A stretch of 46,695 bases of DNA from a virus, in IMG/VR virus record IMGVR_UViG_3300010885_042555, positions 1 to 46,695 of that record, one strand, 5' to 3'. Every line of letters begins with the position of its first letter. Positions within the stretch are counted from its first letter, which is position 1. The notes below the pieces were generated by a model. The model saw only the letters and a list, made by a program, of their open reading frames with translations. It had not been told where the DNA came from and did not search any database. Positions 33,486 through 43,562 of the stretch are shown piece after piece. Position numbers and translations under genes: made by a program.

Positions 33486-33965
33486 TTAAACTTGACATCC
33501 AACAAACATTTTTACAATAATTTGTTTGCAAATTGATTCAATCACATAAGCTTCAGCAATAGTTAAACGGTGACCAGCCCAAAAACGCTGGTCTCCTTTC
33601 TTTGAACTAATTTCAAAAGCAAAACCATCATCAAGCTTATACATCTTCATAATTACATTTCCAGATTTATTCTGATGAAAGAAGCCCTTACCCTTTCCGC
33701 TTTCATCAGACATACCAAGGAATGATTTTCTTCCCGATAGCACACATGCTATTTCAGCAACTTCTTCTGTATCTAATTTTACTGTTTCCGAATCTTCCTT
33801 CCATGAAAATCTGTTATTTCCATCAGAGTCTTTTGATGGTTCTTGTTTTGCAACAGTAAGGAAGAAATTGCAAGTTTTGGAATTCCACTCCCATGAAGAA
33901 GCGCATCCTTTAGTGCTATCTTTCATGTTTGGTTTATAAATTTTATAAGATGGGTTATATGACAT
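33486..33965 (-). CDS. Putative ssDNA-binding (PC4/whirly-like) protein
   Basis: The 159-residue protein is the last gene of the minus-strand operon. Its pattern resembles small PC4 or whirly-like DNA-binding proteins: aromatic strands (SSWEWNSKTCNFFLTVAKQ, NRFSWKEDSETVKLDTEEVAEIACVLSG), then GKGFFHQNKSGNVIMKMYK and a C-terminal helix (LTIAEAYVIESICKQIIVKM). This is a resemblance, not a motif match. GAGG precedes the ATG, which overlaps the upstream stop as TAATG. A partner role for the recombination-like protein upstream is plausible. Confidence 0.4.
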   Translation of the reverse strand: MSYNPSYKIYKPNMKDSTKGCASSWEWNSKTCNFFLTVAKQEPSKDSDGNNRFSWKEDSETVKLDTEEVAEIACVLSGRKSFLGMSDESGKGKGFFHQNKSGNVIMKMYKLDDGFAFEISSKKGDQRFWAGHRLTIAEAYVIESICKQIIVKMFVGCQV

Positions 33966-34792
33966 TAGAAAATTACCTCGCCTTTAATTTGTTCTGGTAT
34001 AGTCTGACCACCATTTTCAGGCCCTCTGCTAAAAGTATTTAGTATATTGATCACTTCATGAGATTGCTTATACGTCAAAGTATGAACGCTTTCTGTTTCA
34101 ATTCCACAGAATTTAATAAGCTTTCTTTGATCTACTCCCATTCTGTTGCACATTGTATTAATTGCAATCTTTGCGCTATCTGATATTGGTTTATTCTCAT
34201 CTATTGTTAGTGGATCCATATCCTCTCTAGATACTCCTTGATTAACTTCCTCTAGAGCATATACCCTGACTAATCCAAGAGCCTTACGTAGAGCGCGGGC
34301 TTCTGCCTTGGTTGATGCAGTAGCTACAGAAGCATTGCAATAAGGGAATGGGGTGTTGTCTGGATTAACATCAAAAACATCCGATACATACTCATCTCTT
34401 GCTGAAATAATCCCATGTCGTTTAAATTGAATGCTGCATCTGACTGTAGCAGTTCGATCTGAAATAGTTGGAGACTTAATCACATCAATATCTACCGATG
34501 TAATTCTTCCAATTAGCTTTTTAAAGATTCTTCGTAGACCATCACATGTAGGCATTCCATCTTTACATTCTTTATCTGTCAGTTGTGAAATTACATAGTC
34601 AGACCACTCTGGATCTGTTTCATCAATTCTCTTTGAGCCATCTTGAGATATAACTTCGACAGCAGGGGATACATTTTCTGCTTCAGATATCATCGCTTCT
34701 AGATCACTGATTTCTAGATCTGAGATCAGTGCCTCACTTTTTCCTAGTTGTACCAAACGTTTAATTAATGGTTTCTTGCTTTTTCGTGGCAT
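33965..34792 (-). CDS. Conserved phage protein, putative recombination / ssDNA annealing
   Basis: The 275-residue protein has a helical acidic N-terminus. Then comes KDGMPTCDGLRRIFKKLIG, the strand RTATVRCSIQF, and a striking STKAEARALRKALGLVRVYALEE near residues 160-182. This Ala-Arg-Leu-Arg helix next to a CDGLRR motif resembles a group of phage proteins I associate with single-strand annealing (Rad52/Sak-like) functions. The identification is from memory and unverified. Its neighbours (a possible ssDNA-binding protein downstream, SSB and polymerase upstream in the operon) fit DNA metabolism. It overlaps the upstream gene by 32 nt. Confidence 0.4.
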   Translation of the reverse strand: MPRKSKKPLIKRLVQLGKSEALISDLEISDLEAMISEAENVSPAVEVISQDGSKRIDETDPEWSDYVISQLTDKECKDGMPTCDGLRRIFKKLIGRITSVDIDVIKSPTISDRTATVRCSIQFKRHGIISARDEYVSDVFDVNPDNTPFPYCNASVATASTKAEARALRKALGLVRVYALEEVNQGVSREDMDPLTIDENKPISDSAKIAINTMCNRMGVDQRKLIKFCGIETESVHTLTYKQSHEVINILNTFSRGPENGGQTIPEQIKGEVIF

Positions 34793-35306
34793 AATTTATT
34801 AGTCCTGTATAATCCTCAGCTGATTGTGGCAATGCAACAATTGATCTTCCATAGTTTTTTGATATCGTTGATTCAAAAAGAGATTTGAAGAATTGGTTTG
34901 GAAAAACAATCAAGTCGCACATCTTAAGATTATATTCTGACGTTTTAACTTTTTTAGTGCATGAATAAATATCACGAGCAATCCATATTACTGGCCCTGA
35001 AAAATTTATTTGAGACGTAACATCTTCTAGGGCATCATATGAAAAAACAAATGTTGGTCCAGTTATAGAACCAATATATTGACTTGTAAACAAAGATGTC
35101 GAAGGAACTGATAAAACTTTGTTATCGCCTCTTGTAAATAAATTAAAAGAAACAGCTTTATCCTTACGTTGTGATATAGCCACATTTATTTCATAATATT
35201 GTTGACTCATACACTCATCAAATACAAAGTTTACATTTCCCCTCTTGTATAGAGATCCGACAAAAAAAGTATCCGATATACAATCCTCGTTCATTTCTAC
35301 TGTCAT
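34761..35306 (-). CDS. Hypothetical protein of the glycosyltransferase cluster
   Basis: I place the start at ATG 35306, which has an AGGAGA Shine-Dalgarno 6 nt upstream. The longer frame to 35351 would run into the preceding gene and lacks a ribosome site. The 181-residue protein contains FSGPVIWIARDIYSC and MCDLIVFPNQFFKSLFES. These resemble the end of a GT-B N-terminal domain (a residue such as D or N in a strand followed by a helix), but no C-terminal donor-binding domain is present. It may be a partial glycosyltransferase or an accessory subunit. Confidence 0.45.
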   Translation of the reverse strand: MTVEMNEDCISDTFFVGSLYKRGNVNFVFDECMSQQYYEINVAISQRKDKAVSFNLFTRGDNKVLSVPSTSLFTSQYIGSITGPTFVFSYDALEDVTSQINFSGPVIWIARDIYSCTKKVKTSEYNLKMCDLIVFPNQFFKSLFESTISKNYGRSIVALPQSAEDYTGLINYATKKQETIN

Positions 35307-35307
35307 T

Positions 35308-35985
35308 TTATCTCCTGAGCATTGAATGCTCTCTAGCAATATCCTTACCATCAGCTGTTAGTGTTTTATTTTGGCCGTGATTATAATATCTAAAAAGAGG
35401 TGCTGGTATTCTTAGACACATAAAATTTGCAGCAGATATTCTTAGCCAGTAATCATAATCTTCAATAAGTTTTATAGATTCATTAAATAATCCAATGGTG
35501 TTTACGACTGATCGTTTAATAAAAGAATTTGTTGACACAATGCATTCGTGTTTTAAAATTTCCGCGTTGAAATCAGGTTTTGCGTTATAAAGAGTTTTAT
35601 CTGGAAATATCTCAATATAATCAGAATATACTAAACCAACTTCTGGAGCCATCTCTAGATATTTAATACTTATTTCTGATTTCTGAGCGTGGTATTCATC
35701 ATCTGCGTCTAGAAAGCCTATGTATTCACCAGATGATTCAACAATACCAGCGTTTCTAGCACTTGCTGTTCCACCATTTGACTTTTTAATAAGTCTTATG
35801 TTGTGATCTTGAAATTTTGAAATCAATGATTGTGCTACGAGCAATGAGTTGTCTTTACTGCCATCATCTACAATAATTATCTCAAGTTCAGATTTGTCAA
35901 TTGTTTGTTGTGTTGCGCTTGAAACAGATCTTTCAAGAAGATGTCCTTGGTTATAGTTGGGGATTATTATAGAGCATTTTATCAT
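35308..35985 (-). CDS. Glycosyltransferase family 2 (GT-A)
   Basis: The 225-residue protein is a clear GT-A enzyme. It begins CSIIIPNYNQGHLLERS, has EIIIVDDGSKDNS (D40, D41), and NGGTASARNAG binds the nucleotide sugar. FLDADDEYH carries the metal-binding DxD (D93, D95). Near the end NRYDYWLRISAA-like SIKLIEDYDYWLRI is the acceptor-side signature ED. It transfers an activated sugar, inferred here to phage DNA, virion protein or host glycan. It starts within the upstream stop (ATGA). The DxD is intact, so it is likely active. Confidence 0.9.
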   Translation of the reverse strand: MIKCSIIIPNYNQGHLLERSVSSATQQTIDKSELEIIIVDDGSKDNSLLVAQSLISKFQDHNIRLIKKSNGGTASARNAGIVESSGEYIGFLDADDEYHAQKSEISIKYLEMAPEVGLVYSDYIEIFPDKTLYNAKPDFNAEILKHECIVSTNSFIKRSVVNTIGLFNESIKLIEDYDYWLRISAANFMCLRIPAPLFRYYNHGQNKTLTADGKDIAREHSMLRR

Positions 35986-36512
35986 ACGAAAGCCAACCTT
36001 TTGTTATCAGTATTAAATAGTTCTTCCATCATTATATCTTCATAAGATGATATCTTAAATGCACCATACTGTGAAAAACCATGGCGTTCTGATCTATGCA
36101 GTATCTTATCATTATTTATCTCAAGCGATTTTTCTAATTTATCGATTTTATCACCATTATTATCACCAATCCATATGAAATGCTCATGTGGTGAATTTTT
36201 GTATTGCATCTTTGGGTTTTTTAAATACTCATGCCATACCAAATAGATTGAAGATTCTATCCTCTCATCAAGCGTATCCATTTTTATGGTTTTATAAAAA
36301 TCTGGCAATATTGTAATAAATCTTACGTTTTTATATTCGCCATACAGCTCTTTTTTACAATCCATTTCATTTCCTGATAAACCAATATCCACAAATAAAT
36401 ACTCGTGGGAATCTTTAATCTCAATATTTTTTCGACACTTTGCATTAAAAGTTCCAAAGTTCATTGGACCATCTCTATGCTCTTTTAGCAGAACACAGAC
36501 CACACACTTCAT
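35982..36512 (-). CDS. Hypothetical protein of the glycosyltransferase cluster
   Basis: The 176-residue protein has an N-terminal strand (MKCVVCVLLKEHRDGPMNFG) and alternating strand-helix segments: YLFVDIGLSGNEMD, VRFITILPDFYKT, HFIWIGDNNGDKIDKLEKS. It may be a small Rossmann or GT-A-like protein, but DxD and other motifs are absent. It overlaps both neighbours by 4 nt (ATGA). Its setting suggests a glycan-related role; the function is unknown. Confidence 0.4.
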   Translation of the reverse strand: MKCVVCVLLKEHRDGPMNFGTFNAKCRKNIEIKDSHEYLFVDIGLSGNEMDCKKELYGEYKNVRFITILPDFYKTIKMDTLDERIESSIYLVWHEYLKNPKMQYKNSPHEHFIWIGDNNGDKIDKLEKSLEINNDKILHRSERHGFSQYGAFKISSYEDIMMEELFNTDNKRLAFV

Positions 36513-36952
36513 TGCTTAACTGCCTCCATATTTACTACCCACTGATATGGACCATACCAAGTTTTTGTCACAGAAAAACCAGAAGATTCCAAGGCTTCTT
36601 TTAAAGAATTTTGATCAAGATAAACGTGATACCCACCAAACATACTATTAAATCCTGGAGTGTCTATTACTCCATACGCTAAAGCATTTGAAGCCCCCAC
36701 AACATCAACTATTTTTATTTTTAAAACACATCCAGTGTCTGAAAATTGAGACCACGAATCAATTGTTTCTTTAATTGTGGCTTTAGTTTGTTCTAAAGCC
36801 CCTGGATGAGAAACTATCTCAGTAATTTTTCTACCATTGATACTTTTAATTACATAATCTTCAACCAATTGGTCTGTCTTTATGCCATTTCGTCTTTCTA
36901 GATTTATGTAGCCATCTAGATACGCCTCACCATGATTTATATTAATTTTCAT
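36509..36952 (-). CDS. Degenerate SAM methyltransferase-like protein
   Basis: The 147-residue protein has the layout of small class I methyltransferases found in glycan clusters. It starts MKININHGEAYLDGYINLERR (usually LNLGCGxxxxxGYINVD). Next is EIVSHPGALEQTKATIKETIDSWSQFSDTGCVLKIKIVD, then NSMFGGYHVYLDQNSLKEALESSGFSV (usually GGQ...H..gf...L...L...GF). The glycine-rich SAM loop is replaced by INHGEA, so catalysis is doubtful. It overlaps neighbours by ATGA junctions. Confidence 0.55.
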   Translation of the reverse strand: MKININHGEAYLDGYINLERRNGIKTDQLVEDYVIKSINGRKITEIVSHPGALEQTKATIKETIDSWSQFSDTGCVLKIKIVDVVGASNALAYGVIDTPGFNSMFGGYHVYLDQNSLKEALESSGFSVTKTWYGPYQWVVNMEAVKQ

Positions 36953-37977
36953 AAAATTCCTTCAATCCTTTTGTTATAAGCCAAATCAAACACAGCATTC
37001 CAGCTGTTTGCGAAATCATCTATATTGTAGTTTTGAACTATTCTTTCTCTGCAATATCCGCCAATATTAACGGAATATTCTTTGTCATTGCATATCTTGA
37101 CAATTTGATGAGCCAAATACTCAAGATTATTAGAACAAATAGAGTCATTATTTATGATTGATGGCACTTCCTGATTAGCGGTTGAAACACAGGGTGCGCC
37201 ACAAGACATGGCCTCCATTAATGACATTGGAACTGGTGATAATCTTGATGTATTTAAGTAACACGAGCAATTGTTAATTGCTGAAATCAAATGGCTTTCA
37301 TTGGCCATTGGAGTACTGATCCCTGGATTATCTCCAATAAGCGCAAACTTTATGGATGGATCAATACCTTCAACAATTTTTTTAATTGTTTGCCATTCTG
37401 TATATCCACAGAATTGATCTCTTTGAGCTAGAGCATTCACAATATACAAAACATATTTTTCTTTTTGTGGATCTTCTTTGCTGTTCCATCCAACAAAATC
37501 ATTGGTTCGTATACCATGTTTTACAACCACAGCATTTTCAATACCCCAAGATTTTTTGTTATGTTCTGTGATAAAAACATTTATATCGGCTTTAAAAGAC
37601 ATCATAGCCTTTAATGTTTTATCATCCCAATTTTTAATCTGTGGCTCTATATGCTCTAGATGAACTATTGGAAGACGAAGGGCCTTAGCTATTTCGGTAG
37701 CAAATTGTATTTGACCAAACCTCTCTTGAGACAAAATAAAATCAATATCATATTCTGTATCTGATATCGCATTGTACTCATATGTATGTGGTGGAAGTGG
37801 TTTAAATCTTCTATCCCACTGTTTGCTACCATTACCACGATTTAGTATATAAAAATCATGGCCTGTAGCAAGCGCCAAATTTGTTTGATAAGCCTCGTGA
37901 GTGGCAAATGTTAATATTTTGTATTTATTTTTTGGCTTTCTATTTATCTTGTTTGCTAATGTTATTAGTGGATTCAT
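36949..37977 (-). CDS. Glycosyltransferase, GT-B (GT4-like)
   Basis: The 342-residue protein has a GT-B layout: an N-terminal fold with LATGHDFYILNRG and IVHLEHIEPQIKNW, then a donor domain with YVLYIVNALAQRDQFCGYTEW, KFALIGDN and RLSPVPMSLMEAMSCGAPCVS. The first Glu of the EX7E donor motif appears as Ser in SPVPMSLME, with E conserved at the second position. The gene overlaps both neighbours (ATGA). Substrate unknown. It lies in a cassette of at least four glycosyltransferase-like genes. Confidence 0.8.
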   Translation of the reverse strand: MNPLITLANKINRKPKNKYKILTFATHEAYQTNLALATGHDFYILNRGNGSKQWDRRFKPLPPHTYEYNAISDTEYDIDFILSQERFGQIQFATEIAKALRLPIVHLEHIEPQIKNWDDKTLKAMMSFKADINVFITEHNKKSWGIENAVVVKHGIRTNDFVGWNSKEDPQKEKYVLYIVNALAQRDQFCGYTEWQTIKKIVEGIDPSIKFALIGDNPGISTPMANESHLISAINNCSCYLNTSRLSPVPMSLMEAMSCGAPCVSTANQEVPSIINNDSICSNNLEYLAHQIVKICNDKEYSVNIGGYCRERIVQNYNIDDFANSWNAVFDLAYNKRIEGIL

Positions 37978-39086
37978 TTTGTTCTTAATGCCTTCATTAG
38001 TTTTGGCCCAACTGTCTCATATGAAAATTTATCTACCATTTTTGAGTAATTATTTATTGCAATTTGTTTATATTTTCCTTCTACTGCAGCTCTCATTTTT
38101 TGCATCATTTCCCATAGGGAACCCTCCATCCACCACTCATTGTGTGAATATAGACCAGGAACTATTGCCGTTTTTGACATGGCAAATACTGGTTTTTTAA
38201 TCATTGATTTTACTGTAGGCTCATAATCCAAATCAAACATTTTTGAGATACCATTCCAATGTGTTGCTATTACTGGCTTTTTAAAAGAAGCGGCATCAAA
38301 TGCTGGAATGCATTCACCCTCTCCTCTTGACGCAGTAACATAGCAATCAAAGTGCTGATGCATACCAAGTATCTCATTGTCAGATAAAACATCTGTCAGG
38401 ATTACGATTTTTGGGTAGTCTTTTTCGGCCCTTCGTATTTCTGATTTAATAGAAGATATTGCTTCTTTAATATGAGCTAGTGATTCACTAGGCCCTTTAC
38501 CATCAACATAAGTCTTTATTACAAGAGAAACGTTGTCTCTTGCGGAAAACTCTGATAAAAAAGCCGTTACTGTGCTTGCAATATTCTTTCTATATGAGTA
38601 GTCAGAGATAGTATAAAATTTATAAGTATCTTTTATTTCATCAGGTATTAAAGGAGCTTTGTAATCAACAGAATATTTTGTAAAATCATTTGGGCGTGTA
38701 ACCTCTGTTAATATTGATTTTACTCCAGACTCTTTGGCTGCTTGTATTTGGTCGTTTGTTGTCATCCAAATATCATCCATCAAATTACAAGAGTATTGCC
38801 ACCCTGAAGATTTAAAAGAACTGCTTTCCCAATAAAATAGACCAATATTCCTAACTCCAGCAATTCTTACAAAACTATTTGGTATTGTTTGTTGTATAAC
38901 CACATCAACACTATCAAGGTCATTTCTAACAGATATATCTTTATCAATGTTGATTGGTCGTGAGTTTAAAGTAAACCAAACCGGAACAACATCAGCCCCT
39001 TGTTGCGACAAACATTTTATGAAATCTCGTGCAGAATTTCCATATCCAGTCCCATCTCTATATACTGATAAATATGCTATTTTCAT
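37974..39086 (-). CDS. Glycosyltransferase, GT-B (GT4-like)
   Basis: The 370-residue protein starts with the GT-B-type MKIAYLSVYRDGTGYGNSARD, and the donor domain has FYTISDYSYRKNIASTVTAFL, IVILTDVLSDNEI and ASRGEGECIPAFDAASFKKPVIATHW. The EX7E motif reads E-x7-D here. It starts in the upstream stop (ATGA overlap). Function is by fold; acceptor and donor are unknown. Its activity probably depends on a sugar nucleotide from host or phage pathways. Confidence 0.82.
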   Translation of the reverse strand: MKIAYLSVYRDGTGYGNSARDFIKCLSQQGADVVPVWFTLNSRPINIDKDISVRNDLDSVDVVIQQTIPNSFVRIAGVRNIGLFYWESSSFKSSGWQYSCNLMDDIWMTTNDQIQAAKESGVKSILTEVTRPNDFTKYSVDYKAPLIPDEIKDTYKFYTISDYSYRKNIASTVTAFLSEFSARDNVSLVIKTYVDGKGPSESLAHIKEAISSIKSEIRRAEKDYPKIVILTDVLSDNEILGMHQHFDCYVTASRGEGECIPAFDAASFKKPVIATHWNGISKMFDLDYEPTVKSMIKKPVFAMSKTAIVPGLYSHNEWWMEGSLWEMMQKMRAAVEGKYKQIAINNYSKMVDKFSYETVGPKLMKALRTK

Positions 39087-40747
39087 AATACTGTTGTATT
39101 CCTGTTGTTTATGGGCTGTCGTGTCTCGGTATTGATTAAAAATCTATGCTGCTCAAACATATTTCTGTCATGTATTTCTTTTTGAATTATATTGTTTAAT
39201 TTATTAATATCAATATCACTGTTTTGTGTTGCAAGATTTTTATTCATTACATCAGAAATATTTGCCATCTGGAACGGTGTTTTTTGCATTGTTCCAGGAG
39301 TGAAATATTGTGAAGCAATTTTACATATTGTTGCGTTATCTGTTCTATTGTCAGCTTGAAGATTAACATATTGATTTATTTTTGGTGGTGCAAACCATCT
39401 GAAAGGATTTTTAATTTCTATAGAATCAAATATTCTAGACCATTTTTCAGCAAATCCATCGCTAGAATGCATTTTTACCGCAGTATCACGAGCCAACTCA
39501 GACATCAAGTTTCGTTTCTCTGATGACTCTTGTAGATAAGATGTAATTAATTCAGAAAGGTGTGAATCATCTGGTATTGCTCTTATTTGACTTGTCTCAC
39601 GTATAGATTCCTGCCTCCATCCAGATATTCTTACTTGCCCATATCCACCACCCAGTCTAGCTAATTCATATGGCGCTGCATAATCTACCGAAATAACAGT
39701 AACACCACAAGCCTTTGCTTCAATTATTGGTATTTCTAGAGCGCCAGCAACACTGTGCTGAACGTAAAGATCTGCAATGTTATATATTTTAGCCAATTCT
39801 TCACGCGAAGAACCATTGGATGTATTAGCCATTGCACATGATTTTTGACCACACTTTTCGCAATACTTTCTGTCGCCAGAATAAAATCCTGGAATAGACT
39901 TTTTACAAATTTGACAATAGTACGTAACAATAACTCTTGAACCAACACCGTATCTAATAATTTCTTTTGGTATATCAAAGCCACAGTCAGGATTACCTGT
40001 ATGCAAATACAAATATGTTTTATCTGCGATTTCAGAAAGACCCTGTTTATACAGGCTATCTATTGAGTTTGAGAAAGCTTTAATCAACCCAGGAAAAAGT
40101 TTTCTTGGTTGGTTTCTCATCACAGTCATTATTATATTAGCATCTTCATTTATACCATATTCCGACCTAATGGCTTTTTTATCCATTGGTTTAAATATTT
40201 CCAAATCCACTCCAGGCATAGTGTTTAATGAGCAAACATTGAGTTTACCATTTCCATACTTTGAAAGAACGCTAATTCCCCAATCAGTGTACGATGTGAG
40301 CAAATCAACCGTAGATAATGTTGATAGCCATTCGTCTCTTGGAGGCTCAGAGTCTACACATACAGACCATATGTATGTATAGTATGGTCTTGATGGAGAC
40401 TTAGTTATGAACTCATCGTGCCAATAATCTCTGTAAGAGAAAACAATATCTGGTTTAAACTCATTTACCGCCGCTTCAAATCTTAAAGATCCAAATTGTG
40501 CTGTGTTGTATTCTTGTTGAAATTTTTGCATCTCAGCAGTATTTGTCTGAGATGGTATAACTGGAAAAACTTTCCAAGGAAGAGTTTTAACTCTAGGATC
40601 ATCATCAGATACATATGATGCTAATTCTGCCACTTCATATTTTCCAGATTTATGCAGCCTAGAAAGAAGATCATAGGCCATAACAGAAAAGCCTGTATTT
40701 AACAGGCTAAACTCACTAACCAAAAGTATTTTTTTCTTATTGCTCAC
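39083..40747 (-). CDS. Glycosyltransferase with embedded zinc ribbon
   Basis: I set the start at GTG 40747 (554 residues), as AAAGGG lies about 10 nt upstream and the protein begins MSNKKKILLVSEFSLLNTGF, a natural GT-B start. The frame stays open to a TTG at 40810, but that part overlaps a small gene. The donor domain has NIIMTVMRNQPRKLFPGLIKAF and YLYLHTGNPD. A Cys-rich insert CQIC...CEKC (C278, C281, C296, C299) follows, then IADLYVQHSVAGALEIPII and EAKACGVTVISVDYAAPYE. The insert looks like a zinc ribbon, which is unusual inside a GT-B domain. The C-terminal 70 residues are not conserved-looking. It overlaps its downstream neighbour (ATGA). Confidence 0.75.
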   Translation of the reverse strand: MSNKKKILLVSEFSLLNTGFSVMAYDLLSRLHKSGKYEVAELASYVSDDDPRVKTLPWKVFPVIPSQTNTAEMQKFQQEYNTAQFGSLRFEAAVNEFKPDIVFSYRDYWHDEFITKSPSRPYYTYIWSVCVDSEPPRDEWLSTLSTVDLLTSYTDWGISVLSKYGNGKLNVCSLNTMPGVDLEIFKPMDKKAIRSEYGINEDANIIMTVMRNQPRKLFPGLIKAFSNSIDSLYKQGLSEIADKTYLYLHTGNPDCGFDIPKEIIRYGVGSRVIVTYYCQICKKSIPGFYSGDRKYCEKCGQKSCAMANTSNGSSREELAKIYNIADLYVQHSVAGALEIPIIEAKACGVTVISVDYAAPYELARLGGGYGQVRISGWRQESIRETSQIRAIPDDSHLSELITSYLQESSEKRNLMSELARDTAVKMHSSDGFAEKWSRIFDSIEIKNPFRWFAPPKINQYVNLQADNRTDNATICKIASQYFTPGTMQKTPFQMANISDVMNKNLATQNSDIDINKLNNIIQKEIHDRNMFEQHRFLINTETRQPINNRNTTVL

Positions 40748-40910
40748 CGGTTGTAAACCCTTTAAATTTACCAAGGTTTCGTGAAGCCTTAGTCGTTTTT
40801 TCAAGCTCAATCATTATTTCTTCCGCGAGATCATCAAGAAGGCCAGGAGCCTGTAGCAAACCCCTAGCCTTCAAGATCTCAAGAATTTTTAGTATCTTGA
40901 TCGATGACAT
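40737..40910 (-). CDS. Small hypothetical protein between SSB and glycosyltransferase
   Basis: A 57-residue frame runs from ATG 40910 to TAA 40737, starting inside the SSB stop (TAATG). It begins MSSIKILKILEILKARGLLQ, continues PGLLDDLAEEIMIELEKT and ends FTTGEQ. It looks like two amphipathic helices. It overlaps the GTG start of the glycosyltransferase by 11 nt. It fills the 100-nt gap that would otherwise be left in this tight operon. Family unknown. Confidence 0.65.
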   Translation of the reverse strand: MSSIKILKILEILKARGLLQAPGLLDDLAEEIMIELEKTTKASRNLGKFKGFTTGEQ

Positions 40911-41344
40911 TAGAATGGAATGTCTTCAAGATTCTTTTCGCTGCTCTTTGAAGAGCCGATCTTCTTGGAAGTCTTTACTGTAGACTTTTCAGAAGATTCT
41001 TTTTGCTCAGAGCTTCTTCTCTGTAGGAACTCAAAATCTTCGATGCTAACAAGAATCTTGCTTCGCTTTTCGCCGTCTTTATTTTCCCAATTTTCCTGCT
41101 TCAGGTGACCTTCAACTAGAATTGGGTCAGCCTTCTTTACATATTCGGCAATTACACCAGCTCTTGGACCCCACATTTCACAATCAATGTATGTGGTATC
41201 CTCCTTCTTCTCACCAGACTTTGTGGTATAACGTCTGTTGATTGCCATTCGAAAACGAACGACGCTGTTATTATCACCAATCTCTTTTAGTTCTGGATCA
41301 GTTACCAGATTACCAACCAATACGACTTTATTGAAATTTGACAT
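40910..41344 (-). CDS. ssb: Single-stranded DNA-binding protein
   Basis: The 144-residue protein is a classical bacterial-type SSB. It starts MSNFNKVVLVGNLVTDPELK, contains VVRFRMAINRRYTTKSGEKK and TYIDCEMWGPRAGVIAEYVKKADPILVEGHLK of the OB fold. A charged Ser/Lys linker follows, and the acidic tip is LEDIPF, which recruits partner proteins. It coats ssDNA during replication and recombination. An AGGT ribosome site precedes ATG 41344. It lies in the operon with the polymerase fragment and exonuclease. Confidence 0.95.
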   Translation of the reverse strand: MSNFNKVVLVGNLVTDPELKEIGDNNSVVRFRMAINRRYTTKSGEKKEDTTYIDCEMWGPRAGVIAEYVKKADPILVEGHLKQENWENKDGEKRSKILVSIEDFEFLQRRSSEQKESSEKSTVKTSKKIGSSKSSEKNLEDIPF

Positions 41345-41392: not shown

Positions 41393-42928
41393 TCAATTAA
41401 TTTCTATCAAAGATTCTACGCACCATCCACTGCCTGTACCTTTTATTGTTAACTCATACTTTCCGTCCTTTCGAATTTTATTTTTATGTTTGGCATATGA
41501 AGTTGGAAACATTACCATTCTTATACTGCCTGATGAATCCGCAAGATTTAGCTGACACATTTCTTGTCCAGGGTTTTCACCCTTCTTAGTAACTGTAAAT
41601 TCAACGTCAATTATTGAGGCTATTACTCTTTTATTTACTCCGCGATTATTTCGCAACATCTTATAACAATCCTTGCAAGTAAAGTCAGTCATGTCTTTGT
41701 ATATATCAACAGCGCTGCATGTCATAGATATACCAAGCAATTCTTTTTCACTTGTAGCCTTCCAATCAATCATGTCTTCTGCTTTGCTATCAATAGCCTC
41801 AGATTCTGATTTTACAATTGGCTTTCTAGCTTTTGTGCTAACTTTATCAGCACAATCTATCATTGCTTTTTTAACATCATCAATTGAGTTACCAGAATTA
41901 AGATTTTCTAGTACAAATTTGATTTCACGCGGAGTTAATTGAGCTAGAGCAGTTACGACATCAATCATGCTTTTTCTTGAAAGACCATATGCATCACAAG
42001 ATCCTGATTTAATAAGCGATTCTACGCCAAGAGACCTAATGGAATCAGACTCTCTAAATGACAAAGTTAAAAACTCTGAGAATGTTTTTGGTCTATTGTT
42101 TTTTACAACAGCCCAATCTTTTTCTCCAAATTGCTTAATATGACTAAGACCATAAATTATTGACTTCTTTCCATCTTTTTGTAATATCTTAAAGTCTTTT
42201 GATGACTCTGCTATAGATGGTGGTAAAATATTTATTCCAGACATCTTGCCTTCATTGATCATATCATGCAATTCTTCTCTAGGCTTTTGACGAGCTTTGG
42301 AGTATGTCAGATAAGTGCAATAAAACTCGTACGGAAAGTTCGCTTTGAGATAGGCTGTGCGATATGACCAAACCGCATACTTCTTTGCGTGTGCATCATT
42401 AAATGCGTATCTTCCTGCACTTTCAATCATTGAAAAGAGCTTGTCGGCAAGTTCAAGAGTTTTGCCGTTTTTAATACAACCATTGACAAACTTCTCTCGC
42501 AATTCACCAATTACCTTATAATCTTTCTTGCCAATGCCCTTTCTTAGTTTATCGACTATTACTAGCCGATCAATGTATGGCATATCTTTCCAAGCAATTT
42601 CACCACCGAATTTCATTAATTGCTCCTGATAAATCAGGACGCCCATTGTTGGATTAAGTATTCTGTCAACATCTTCATCGCCAAATTTATTTGGTGGTTC
42701 AATGCCATTTCTTACACGAGAATACATCTCAGTCATTCCCGATTCAAGACACGCTGGTCTGATTAGTGCTAGAACAGCGCTTAGTTCATTAATATTTCGT
42801 GGCTTGATTTTGGAAGCCCACTGTTTTCCTAGCTCGCTTTCAAGCTGAAACACCCCTCCAGTATTACCAGCTTGAATTAGCTTCCACGCTTTTTCATTTT
42901 TAAAACTTATGTTGTTGATGTCAAGCAT
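41393..42928 (-). CDS. dnaE-C: C-terminal half of DNA polymerase III alpha (DnaE-type), split
   Basis: The 511-residue protein matches DnaE only from the region GVFQLES on (residues 25-31). It has INELSAVLALIRPACLESGM, GVLIYQEQLMKFGGE and IGKKDYKVIGELREKFVNG of the fingers. AGRYAFNDAHAKKYAVWSYRTAYLKANFP comes next. The following region (LPPSIAESSKDF, IIYGLSHIKQFGEK, LIKSGSCDAYG) is the helix-hairpin-helix part. The end VNKRVIASIIDVEF to IEIN is the OB domain. The PHP domain and palm with its catalytic aspartates are missing, and so is the tau-binding tail. The ATG 42928 overlaps the exonuclease stop by 8 nt, leaving no room for a longer frame, so the missing half must be a separate gene elsewhere. 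Confidence 0.85.
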   Translation of the reverse strand: MLDINNISFKNEKAWKLIQAGNTGGVFQLESELGKQWASKIKPRNINELSAVLALIRPACLESGMTEMYSRVRNGIEPPNKFGDEDVDRILNPTMGVLIYQEQLMKFGGEIAWKDMPYIDRLVIVDKLRKGIGKKDYKVIGELREKFVNGCIKNGKTLELADKLFSMIESAGRYAFNDAHAKKYAVWSYRTAYLKANFPYEFYCTYLTYSKARQKPREELHDMINEGKMSGINILPPSIAESSKDFKILQKDGKKSIIYGLSHIKQFGEKDWAVVKNNRPKTFSEFLTLSFRESDSIRSLGVESLIKSGSCDAYGLSRKSMIDVVTALAQLTPREIKFVLENLNSGNSIDDVKKAMIDCADKVSTKARKPIVKSESEAIDSKAEDMIDWKATSEKELLGISMTCSAVDIYKDMTDFTCKDCYKMLRNNRGVNKRVIASIIDVEFTVTKKGENPGQEMCQLNLADSSGSIRMVMFPTSYAKHKNKIRKDGKYELTIKGTGSGWCVESLIEIN

Positions 42929-43562
42929 TGTTTGTTATTTTAATTTTAGGTCTTATCTTAAAGTTCATGAACGACATATATCGCTTAAACATTTCTGCAG
43001 TTATTTTAACGTCCTCAATAGCATCGTGAGTGTGTGTTTCGCGCTTCATCCCAAGCAATTCAGCATAGGTATCAAGCCTATTATTTTTCAAATTGTCTCT
43101 TCCAAATATTGAGAAAAGAAGTGGCATCATGTCAAGTTTAATGTTTGACCACGGGCAATCATTTCTACCAGAAATAATCTTATATTTTCTCATCCAATAC
43201 TCAACAAATTTATCATCAAAACCTGTATTGTTAAAACCAACCACTATTGGATAGTTCCATGGATTTTCAGATGGATTTGAAATTGCCAAATACTCCTTGA
43301 ATTTACGCAGCGCTGTCTTTGGATGAACACCATTTTCTCTAGCCGAAGTCCATAATTTGTCACCAATGACTTCTATCGCTTTGGCATCGGCCAATTCAGG
43401 ACTTTGCGGTTGTATGACGATTGAAAATGGTGGAATCGTTTTTGAAATTTCGTAATCGGAATAATTAAGGGTCACTGCAGCTATTTGTACTATTTCTGCA
43501 CCATTTTCATAATCAAGACCGCTTGTTTCAATATCATAAACAACGAAGTTCCTCTTGTTCAT
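42921..43562 (-). CDS. DnaQ-like 3'-5' exonuclease (DEDDh)
   Basis: The 213-residue protein carries the DEDDh motifs: Exo I YDIETSGLD (D10, E12), Exo II VGFNNTGFDDKFV and Exo III HTHDAIEDVKITAEMF. This is a proofreading-type exonuclease and very likely partners the polymerase half encoded next. It is the first gene of the long minus-strand operon. ATG 43562 is preceded after exactly 5 nt by TACAAT, a leaderless start. Confidence 0.92.
   Translation of the reverse strand: MNKRNFVVYDIETSGLDYENGAEIVQIAAVTLNYSDYEISKTIPPFSIVIQPQSPELADAKAIEVIGDKLWTSARENGVHPKTALRKFKEYLAISNPSENPWNYPIVVGFNNTGFDDKFVEYWMRKYKIISGRNDCPWSNIKLDMMPLLFSIFGRDNLKNNRLDTYAELLGMKRETHTHDAIEDVKITAEMFKRYMSFMNFKIRPKIKITNNA

What the first reader, a model, noticed from the sequence alone, without database searches (positions are those of the whole stretch)
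41393..43562. Split DNA polymerase III alpha: only fingers, HhH and OB domains next to a DnaQ-like exonuclease
The 511-residue protein matches DnaE cleanly from just before GVFQLES to the OB domain, and the frame cannot extend upstream because the exonuclease gene overlaps it. The catalytic PHP and palm part is not in this window. A clean domain-boundary start suggests an established two-subunit polymerase rather than a decayed gene. The adjacent DEDDh exonuclease could be part of the same complex.
Basis: partly seen in the sequence, partly recalled or inferred. Interest (0 to 1): 0.66.

Follow-up and report, generated by a model that had tools for sequence, protein, structure and literature searches.

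The report
Two-piece phage replicative DNA polymerase
A widespread group of uncultured large phages makes its bacterial-type replicative DNA polymerase as two separate proteins, cut cleanly between the catalytic palm and the fingers and usually with a proofreading-type exonuclease gene between them; this window carries the exonuclease and the fingers half of such an enzyme.

Summary
Window 41393-42928(-) encodes only fingers, HhH and OB domains of a DnaE-type Pol III alpha, 8 nt overlapping a DEDDh exonuclease gene. The window is a whole 46.7-kb IMG/VR fragment without PHP/palm. The missing half exists: in 6 of 6 close relatives (75-84% identical) whose contigs extend far enough, a separate ~628-aa PHP-palm protein lies ~9-10 kb upstream on the same strand. 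It holds all three catalytic Asp and ends just before the fingers; the window's contig ends ~6-7 kb short of that place. No intein sequence was found at the junction. Both halves are under strong purifying selection and are predicted to fold like DnaE. In 19 long relatives the split enzyme is the only replicase found. Best reading: an obligate two-subunit C-family replicase with its own exonuclease. Split Pol III alpha genes are known (cyanobacterial split intein; a minimal form in group 2.2 jumbo phages), but I found no report of this intein-free PHP-palm / fingers-OB split. Biochemical assembly is inferred.

The parts
41393..42928 (-). C half of a split DnaE-type DNA polymerase III alpha: fingers, HhH, OB; ends after the OB domain (no tau-binding CTD)
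   Evidence: AlphaFold2 pLDDT 92; Foldseek best matches Taq Pol III alpha 4iqj and M. tuberculosis DnaE 7pu7; dN/dS about 0.05 against the nearest relative
42921..43562 (-). DEDDh (DnaQ/epsilon-like) 3'-5' exonuclease gene; its stop overlaps the C-half start codon by 8 nt
   Evidence: RNase_T E 4.6e-17, PHROG 192 DNA polymerase exonuclease subunit; motifs YDIET, GFNNTGFDD, HDAIEDV visible in the sequence; the homologous gene lies between the N and C halves in 127 loci
40910..41344 (-). Single-stranded DNA-binding protein gene directly downstream; the same neighbour in the distant relatives inspected
   Evidence: Pfam SSB E 3e-29; SSB downstream of the C half in L032, L033, L035, L048, L049, L050, L069, L081 and L004
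43563..46695 (.). Start of the ~9-10 kb block of mixed-strand genes that in this clade separates the exonuclease/C half from the N half; the contig ends inside it, so the N half (PHP-palm) is not in the window
   Evidence: in L001/L013 the N half ends about 9.7 kb upstream of the exonuclease start; L027 layout

Best explanation
The gene is the C subunit of a two-subunit C-family (DnaE-type) replicative polymerase. Subunit N (~628 aa; PHP, palm, thumb; all three catalytic aspartates) and subunit C (~511 aa; fingers, HhH, OB) are translated separately and are proposed to associate without a covalent link to form the catalytic cleft. The fingers close on the dNTP held by the palm of the other subunit, and HhH and OB hold the DNA and template. 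The DEDDh exonuclease encoded beside subunit C is proposed to be the proofreading subunit. Shown: both genes, their conservation, co-occurrence, congruent evolution, selection, domain content, intact palm active site, and the absence of an intein at the junction. Inferred: physical assembly, activity, and the exonuclease as a third subunit.
For: The N half is found on 6 of 8 close-relative contigs; the two without it are contigs that end before the expected place. It ends at the same point in all (...KFDILG...YYD*), and the C half starts at the same Met in all eight. Same split in 93 distinct N+C pairs, 127 loci with the exonuclease between. The palm Asp triad (E. coli D401, D403, D555) is invariant in 77 of 77 N halves; the split lies between E. 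coli residues ~574 and ~583. dN/dS 0.03-0.05 for N and C. N, C and exonuclease distance matrices correlate (r 0.95-0.96; 0.84-0.85 in the main clade). AF2: N half pLDDT 83, C half 92, both matching DnaE structures. PHROG 405: N covers 42-617 and C 624-1067 of 1190. 20 long contigs (19 with the split enzyme, L015 fused) have exactly one fingers domain, no PolA, no PolB; DnaB in 19 of 20. All split rows but phiT1 and L093 form one group (SH-aLRT 100).
Against: No biochemical data and no two-chain model could be run. The window's own N half is off the contig. In the window clade the palm motif GPGRGS is changed to ADIRGS and three PHP ligands are lost, so activity there is less certain than in the main clade. 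No phage beta clamp of the bacterial type was found, so processivity would need a host clamp or an unrecognised factor. None of the genomes is known to be complete.
Confidence: 0.82

Rival explanations
1. The halves are joined after transcription or translation (split intein, trans-spliced intron, frameshift or read-through) into one ordinary DnaE polypeptide.
For: Relatives of this polymerase carry real split inteins at GPGRG|S (L086, L088, L087) and FNK|SHA (L071, L084) and full inteins at RPG|C (L186, L087, L082). Cyanobacterial DnaE is a known split-intein case.
Against: No intein N- or C-terminal model matches the window C half, L013 or L048 N halves or the L035 C half at E <= 0.1, while the same models recognise the true cases. 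N halves end within ~15-40 residues of KFDILG, and C halves start with native DnaE sequence or a short CGC-motif extension. Another gene, or 9-10 kb with genes on both strands, lies between. No Rfam intron in the window.
Confidence: 0.05
2. The C half acts alone, for example as a DNA-binding or host-polymerase-modulating factor that hijacks host DnaE, rather than as a subunit with the phage N half.
For: In the window clade the halves are no longer in one operon; the C half is predicted to fold well on its own.
Against: The N half always co-occurs where the contig allows with an invariant palm triad; N and C distances are correlated. Fingers without a palm have no known function.
Confidence: 0.08
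3. Decayed remnant of a DnaE gene, or an assembly break that cut one gene in two.
For: Only half a polymerase is visible in the window itself.
Against: The same boundary recurs in ~90 distinct pairs; dN/dS is about 0.05; fingers motifs are intact; the missing half is found in relatives.
Confidence: 0.01
4. The C half is a subunit, but the adjacent exonuclease is not part of the complex and is merely a neighbouring replication gene.
For: The isolated phage phiT1 has the same palm/fingers split without an exonuclease between the halves. No alpha-binding or clamp-binding segment was demonstrated in the exonuclease.
Against: The exonuclease is between the halves or next to the C half in 127 loci, its distances correlate with both halves (r 0.95-0.96), and it stays with the C half when the N half is moved away in the window clade.
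Confidence: 0.25

Closest known systems
Bacterial DnaE (Pol III alpha, C-family)
   Same: PHP, palm with three Asp, fingers, HhH, OB; closest solved structures by sequence and by fold
   Different: Two polypeptides instead of one; ends after OB without the C-terminal tau-binding domain
Cyanobacterial split DnaE with split intein (Synechocystis/Nostoc DnaE)
   Same: A DnaE encoded by two distant genes
   Different: There, intein halves ligate the pieces and the break is inside the fingers (Y|CFNK, from own knowledge). Here the break is at the palm/fingers linker and no intein is present
Minimal split Pol III alpha of group 2.2 jumbo phages (Iyer et al. 2021, PMC7824862)
   Same: Pol III alpha catalytic module split over two standalone phage proteins, proposed to reconstitute an enzyme
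   Different: Described as only the core nucleotidyltransferase and template-binding parts, without other Pol III domains, and alongside a family B polymerase. Here PHP, HhH and OB are kept and no PolB or PolA is found. Homology of the two forms was not tested
Rossellomorea phage phiT1 gp20/gp18 (PV767480.1)
   Same: Break at the same palm/fingers linker; both halves annotated 'DNA polymerase III subunit alpha'
   Different: A 49-aa gene instead of an exonuclease between the halves; placed outside the main group, although one common origin is not rejected (AU p 0.31)
Intron- or intein-broken phage polymerases (e.g. PolA in OM43 phages, PMC10580990; PolB of MIJ3, PMC6892783)
   Same: Polymerase gene in more than one ORF
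   Different: Family A or B; interpreted by their authors as intron or intein

Membership tests
C-family DNA polymerase (DnaE) | Palm with conserved Asp triad (E. coli D401, D403, D555) | tested here: met
   Invariant in 77/77 N halves of relatives; not present in the window because the contig ends
C-family DNA polymerase (DnaE) | Fingers, HhH and OB domains | tested here: met
   Pfam finger and HHH_6; OB by PDB alignment and fold and weakly by Pfam in a relative
C-family DNA polymerase (DnaE) | PHP domain | tested here: met
   PF02811 E 1.8e-36 in L013 and 2.7e-36 in L048. Metal ligands kept in about 70 of 75 main-clade sequences, several lost in the window clade
C-family DNA polymerase (DnaE) | Single polypeptide | tested here: not met
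   Two genes in all members, separated by an exonuclease gene or by ~9-10 kb
C-family DNA polymerase (DnaE) | Beta-clamp binding motif | not tested
   No dedicated motif test was made; no phage beta clamp was found
Split-intein DnaE (cyanobacterial type) | IntN and IntC at the junction | tested here: not met
   No intein model match at E <= 0.1 in the halves, with positive controls in relatives
Minimal split Pol III alpha of group 2.2 jumbo phages | No PHP or other Pol III domains; co-occurs with family B polymerase | tested here: not met
   PHP present; PolB absent from 20 long contigs
DnaQ/epsilon-type proofreading exonuclease | DEDDh catalytic motifs | tested here: met
   RNase_T E 4.6e-17; YDIET, GFNNTGFDD and HDAIEDV in the sequence
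DnaQ/epsilon-type proofreading exonuclease | Physical binding to the alpha subunit | not testable with these tools
   No two-chain prediction or experiment was available

The most novel reading that the evidence does not exclude
A three-part C-family replicase core (PHP-palm, DEDDh exonuclease, fingers-HhH-OB), encoded as one ancient gene block in a large uncultured phage lineage. The palm and fingers form the active site only by subunit assembly, and the exonuclease encoded between them is a structural bridge as well as the proofreader.
Probability: 0.35. Interest if true: 0.75.

Novelty: new variant of a known kind. Interest (0 to 1): 0.63.

Why it matters
Replicative polymerases are normally single chains, and the known split DnaE is re-ligated by an intein. 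Here a whole phage lineage appears to replicate with a polymerase whose catalytic palm and fingers are separate proteins, with a conserved partner exonuclease. The split point is natural and evolutionarily tested, so it makes testable whether a family C active site can assemble in trans and whether assembly is regulated. It is also a ready-made two-component polymerase for in vitro work. The same genes carry split and full inteins at other sites in some members, so the lineage shows neighbouring stages of gene fracture side by side.

Tried and rejected
Decay and assembly error: rejected. Intein or intron at the palm/fingers junction: rejected; the Rfam gathering-threshold scan found nothing in the window or in L086-L088 and L107, but Rfam does not cover every intron. 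A second fused polymerase in the same genomes: not found. Cultured members of the main clade: none in INPHARED, where the best N-half hit is 33.5% identity and, except phiT1, the top hits look fused. Bacterial genomes: the N-half scan of 84,980 species gave only seven split-type contigs, all labelled MAG, so host assignment is unreliable. The independence of the phiT1 split could not be decided (AU p 0.31). Two paper searches returned nothing and the others only the papers named; subscription papers on phage replicases could not be read. A fused N+C chain was not folded because changed sequences are not accepted.

Full report
Observation. The window is a complete but fragmentary IMG/VR record of 46,695 bp. 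ORF 41393-42928(-) encodes 511 aa. It matches the fingers domain of DnaE from its second residue, then HhH, and by sequence and fold an OB domain; it stops there. The reading frame is closed two codons upstream of the ATG, and the DEDDh exonuclease gene upstream overlaps the start by 8 nt. No palm domain is in the window.

The missing half. A search of viral contigs with the C half found eight relatives (75-84% identity) on contigs of 54-125 kb, all starting at the same Met. The palm domain PF07733 was then found on six of them, in a separate open frame. In the two without it the contig ends too close: L003 starts about 520 bp before the C half, and L006 ends about 7 kb upstream. The N protein is 627-628 aa, begins with a PHP domain and ends ~35 residues after the KFDILG motif. 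In the nearest relative it ends about 9.7 kb upstream of the exonuclease. The window has only 3.1 kb there, so its absence is explained by the contig end (inferred).

How widespread. A six-frame HMM scan of 259 loci found 127 loci with N half - exonuclease - C half on one strand, usually with a 0.7-0.9 kb gap. These reduce to 93 distinct N+C pairs, 60 after removing near relatives. The bacterial DnaE genes in the set were all fused, as were several phage genes. The inspected operons read RecB-like nuclease - DnaE-N - exonuclease - DnaE-C - SSB; in the two loci laid out in full, RecA-like, DnaB and primase genes lie just upstream. In the window clade a ~9-10 kb block with genes on both strands separates DnaE-N from the exonuclease.

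Is it the replicase? Twenty long contigs (68-224 kb; 19 with the split enzyme, L015 with a fused one) each have exactly one fingers domain, no family A or B polymerase, and no bacterial-type beta clamp. DnaB helicase is present in 19. These contigs may be incomplete.

Anatomy and selection. The three catalytic aspartates align with E. coli D401, D403 and D555 and are invariant in 77 of 77 N halves. The break falls between E. coli residues ~574 and ~583. dN/dS is 0.03-0.05 for N and C within the window clade (dS is near saturation, so values are approximate). PHP metal ligands are kept in about 70 of 75 main-clade sequences, but three are lost in the window clade, where proofreading would rest on the DEDDh enzyme (inference). 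AlphaFold2 predicts the N half at pLDDT 83 and the C half at 92. Foldseek returns E. coli, Taq and M. tuberculosis Pol III alpha as best matches for both. N, C and exonuclease distance matrices are strongly correlated; this shows co-inheritance, not contact.

Not an intein or intron. NCBIfam intein models find true split inteins in relatives at other sites and nothing in the halves at the palm/fingers junction. The halves also have no room for intein pieces, and unrelated genes lie between them.

Evolution. All split rows except phiT1 and L093 form one group with SH-aLRT 100. The isolated Rossellomorea phage phiT1 has a break at the same linker, with a 49-aa gene between the halves. It is placed elsewhere, but one origin is not rejected. 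The break in L093 is ~70 residues further into the fingers and looks like a different event.

Comparison with the literature. Split Pol III alpha has been described for cyanobacteria (with intein; noted in PMC3919608) and as a minimal PHP-less form beside PolB in group 2.2 jumbo phages (PMC7824862). I found no description of the present form in the open library; subscription papers could not be searched. I therefore call it a new variant of a known kind.

Mechanism. The most likely working model is a heterodimer that forms the polymerase active site in trans, plus a proofreading exonuclease encoded between or beside the halves. Everything up to gene content, conservation and predicted fold is shown; assembly and activity are inferred.

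Noticed in passing
L086 7575-10732, L088 7590-10732, L087 1-2810: Split inteins inside the PHP-palm half at GPGRG|C...: IntN (~90 aa), a free-standing PD-(D/E)XK-like ORF, then IntC ending VHN|SAAGC. In these phages the polymerase is in at least three coding pieces.
   Followed up: partly
L071 12315-15340, L084 12434-15870: A second split-intein site inside the fingers half at SFNK|SHA, close to the cyanobacterial DnaE split-intein site (TIGR01445 and TIGR01443 matches).
   Followed up: partly
L186 10733-13021, L087 3634-6018, L082 5090-7246: Full inteins at LRPG|C...VHN|CLEA in the fingers, with an HNH-like segment in L087.
   Followed up: partly
L107 1861-4932: PHP-palm half broken at the PDIDID catalytic motif with a LAGLIDADG ORF between; intron-like, but no Rfam intron match.
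   Followed up: partly
C-half N termini, e.g. L035 12727, L050 12746, L076 12593: Main-clade C halves carry a ~25-45 aa N-terminal extension with a conserved CGC motif and a further Cys (possible zinc site), absent from the window clade.
   Followed up: no
L013/L011 N half, residues ~365-374: In the window clade the near-universal palm motif GPGRGS reads ADIRGS, followed by a ~10-aa insertion after the DPM motif.
   Followed up: no
L096 (PV767480.1 9714-12996): Rossellomorea phage phiT1, an isolate, has DnaE split at the same linker with a 49-aa gene between; annotated as two 'DNA polymerase III subunit alpha' genes.
   Followed up: partly
L104, L105, L106: Contigs binned as Lokiarchaeota and SAR202 MAGs carry the split polymerase; probably virus contigs in bins, host unproven.
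   Followed up: no
window 33486-40810: A run of minus-strand genes that includes glycosyltransferases (at least 39083-40810 and 35308-35985 by PHROG); glycosyltransferase-like genes also follow SSB in the distant relative L035.
   Followed up: no
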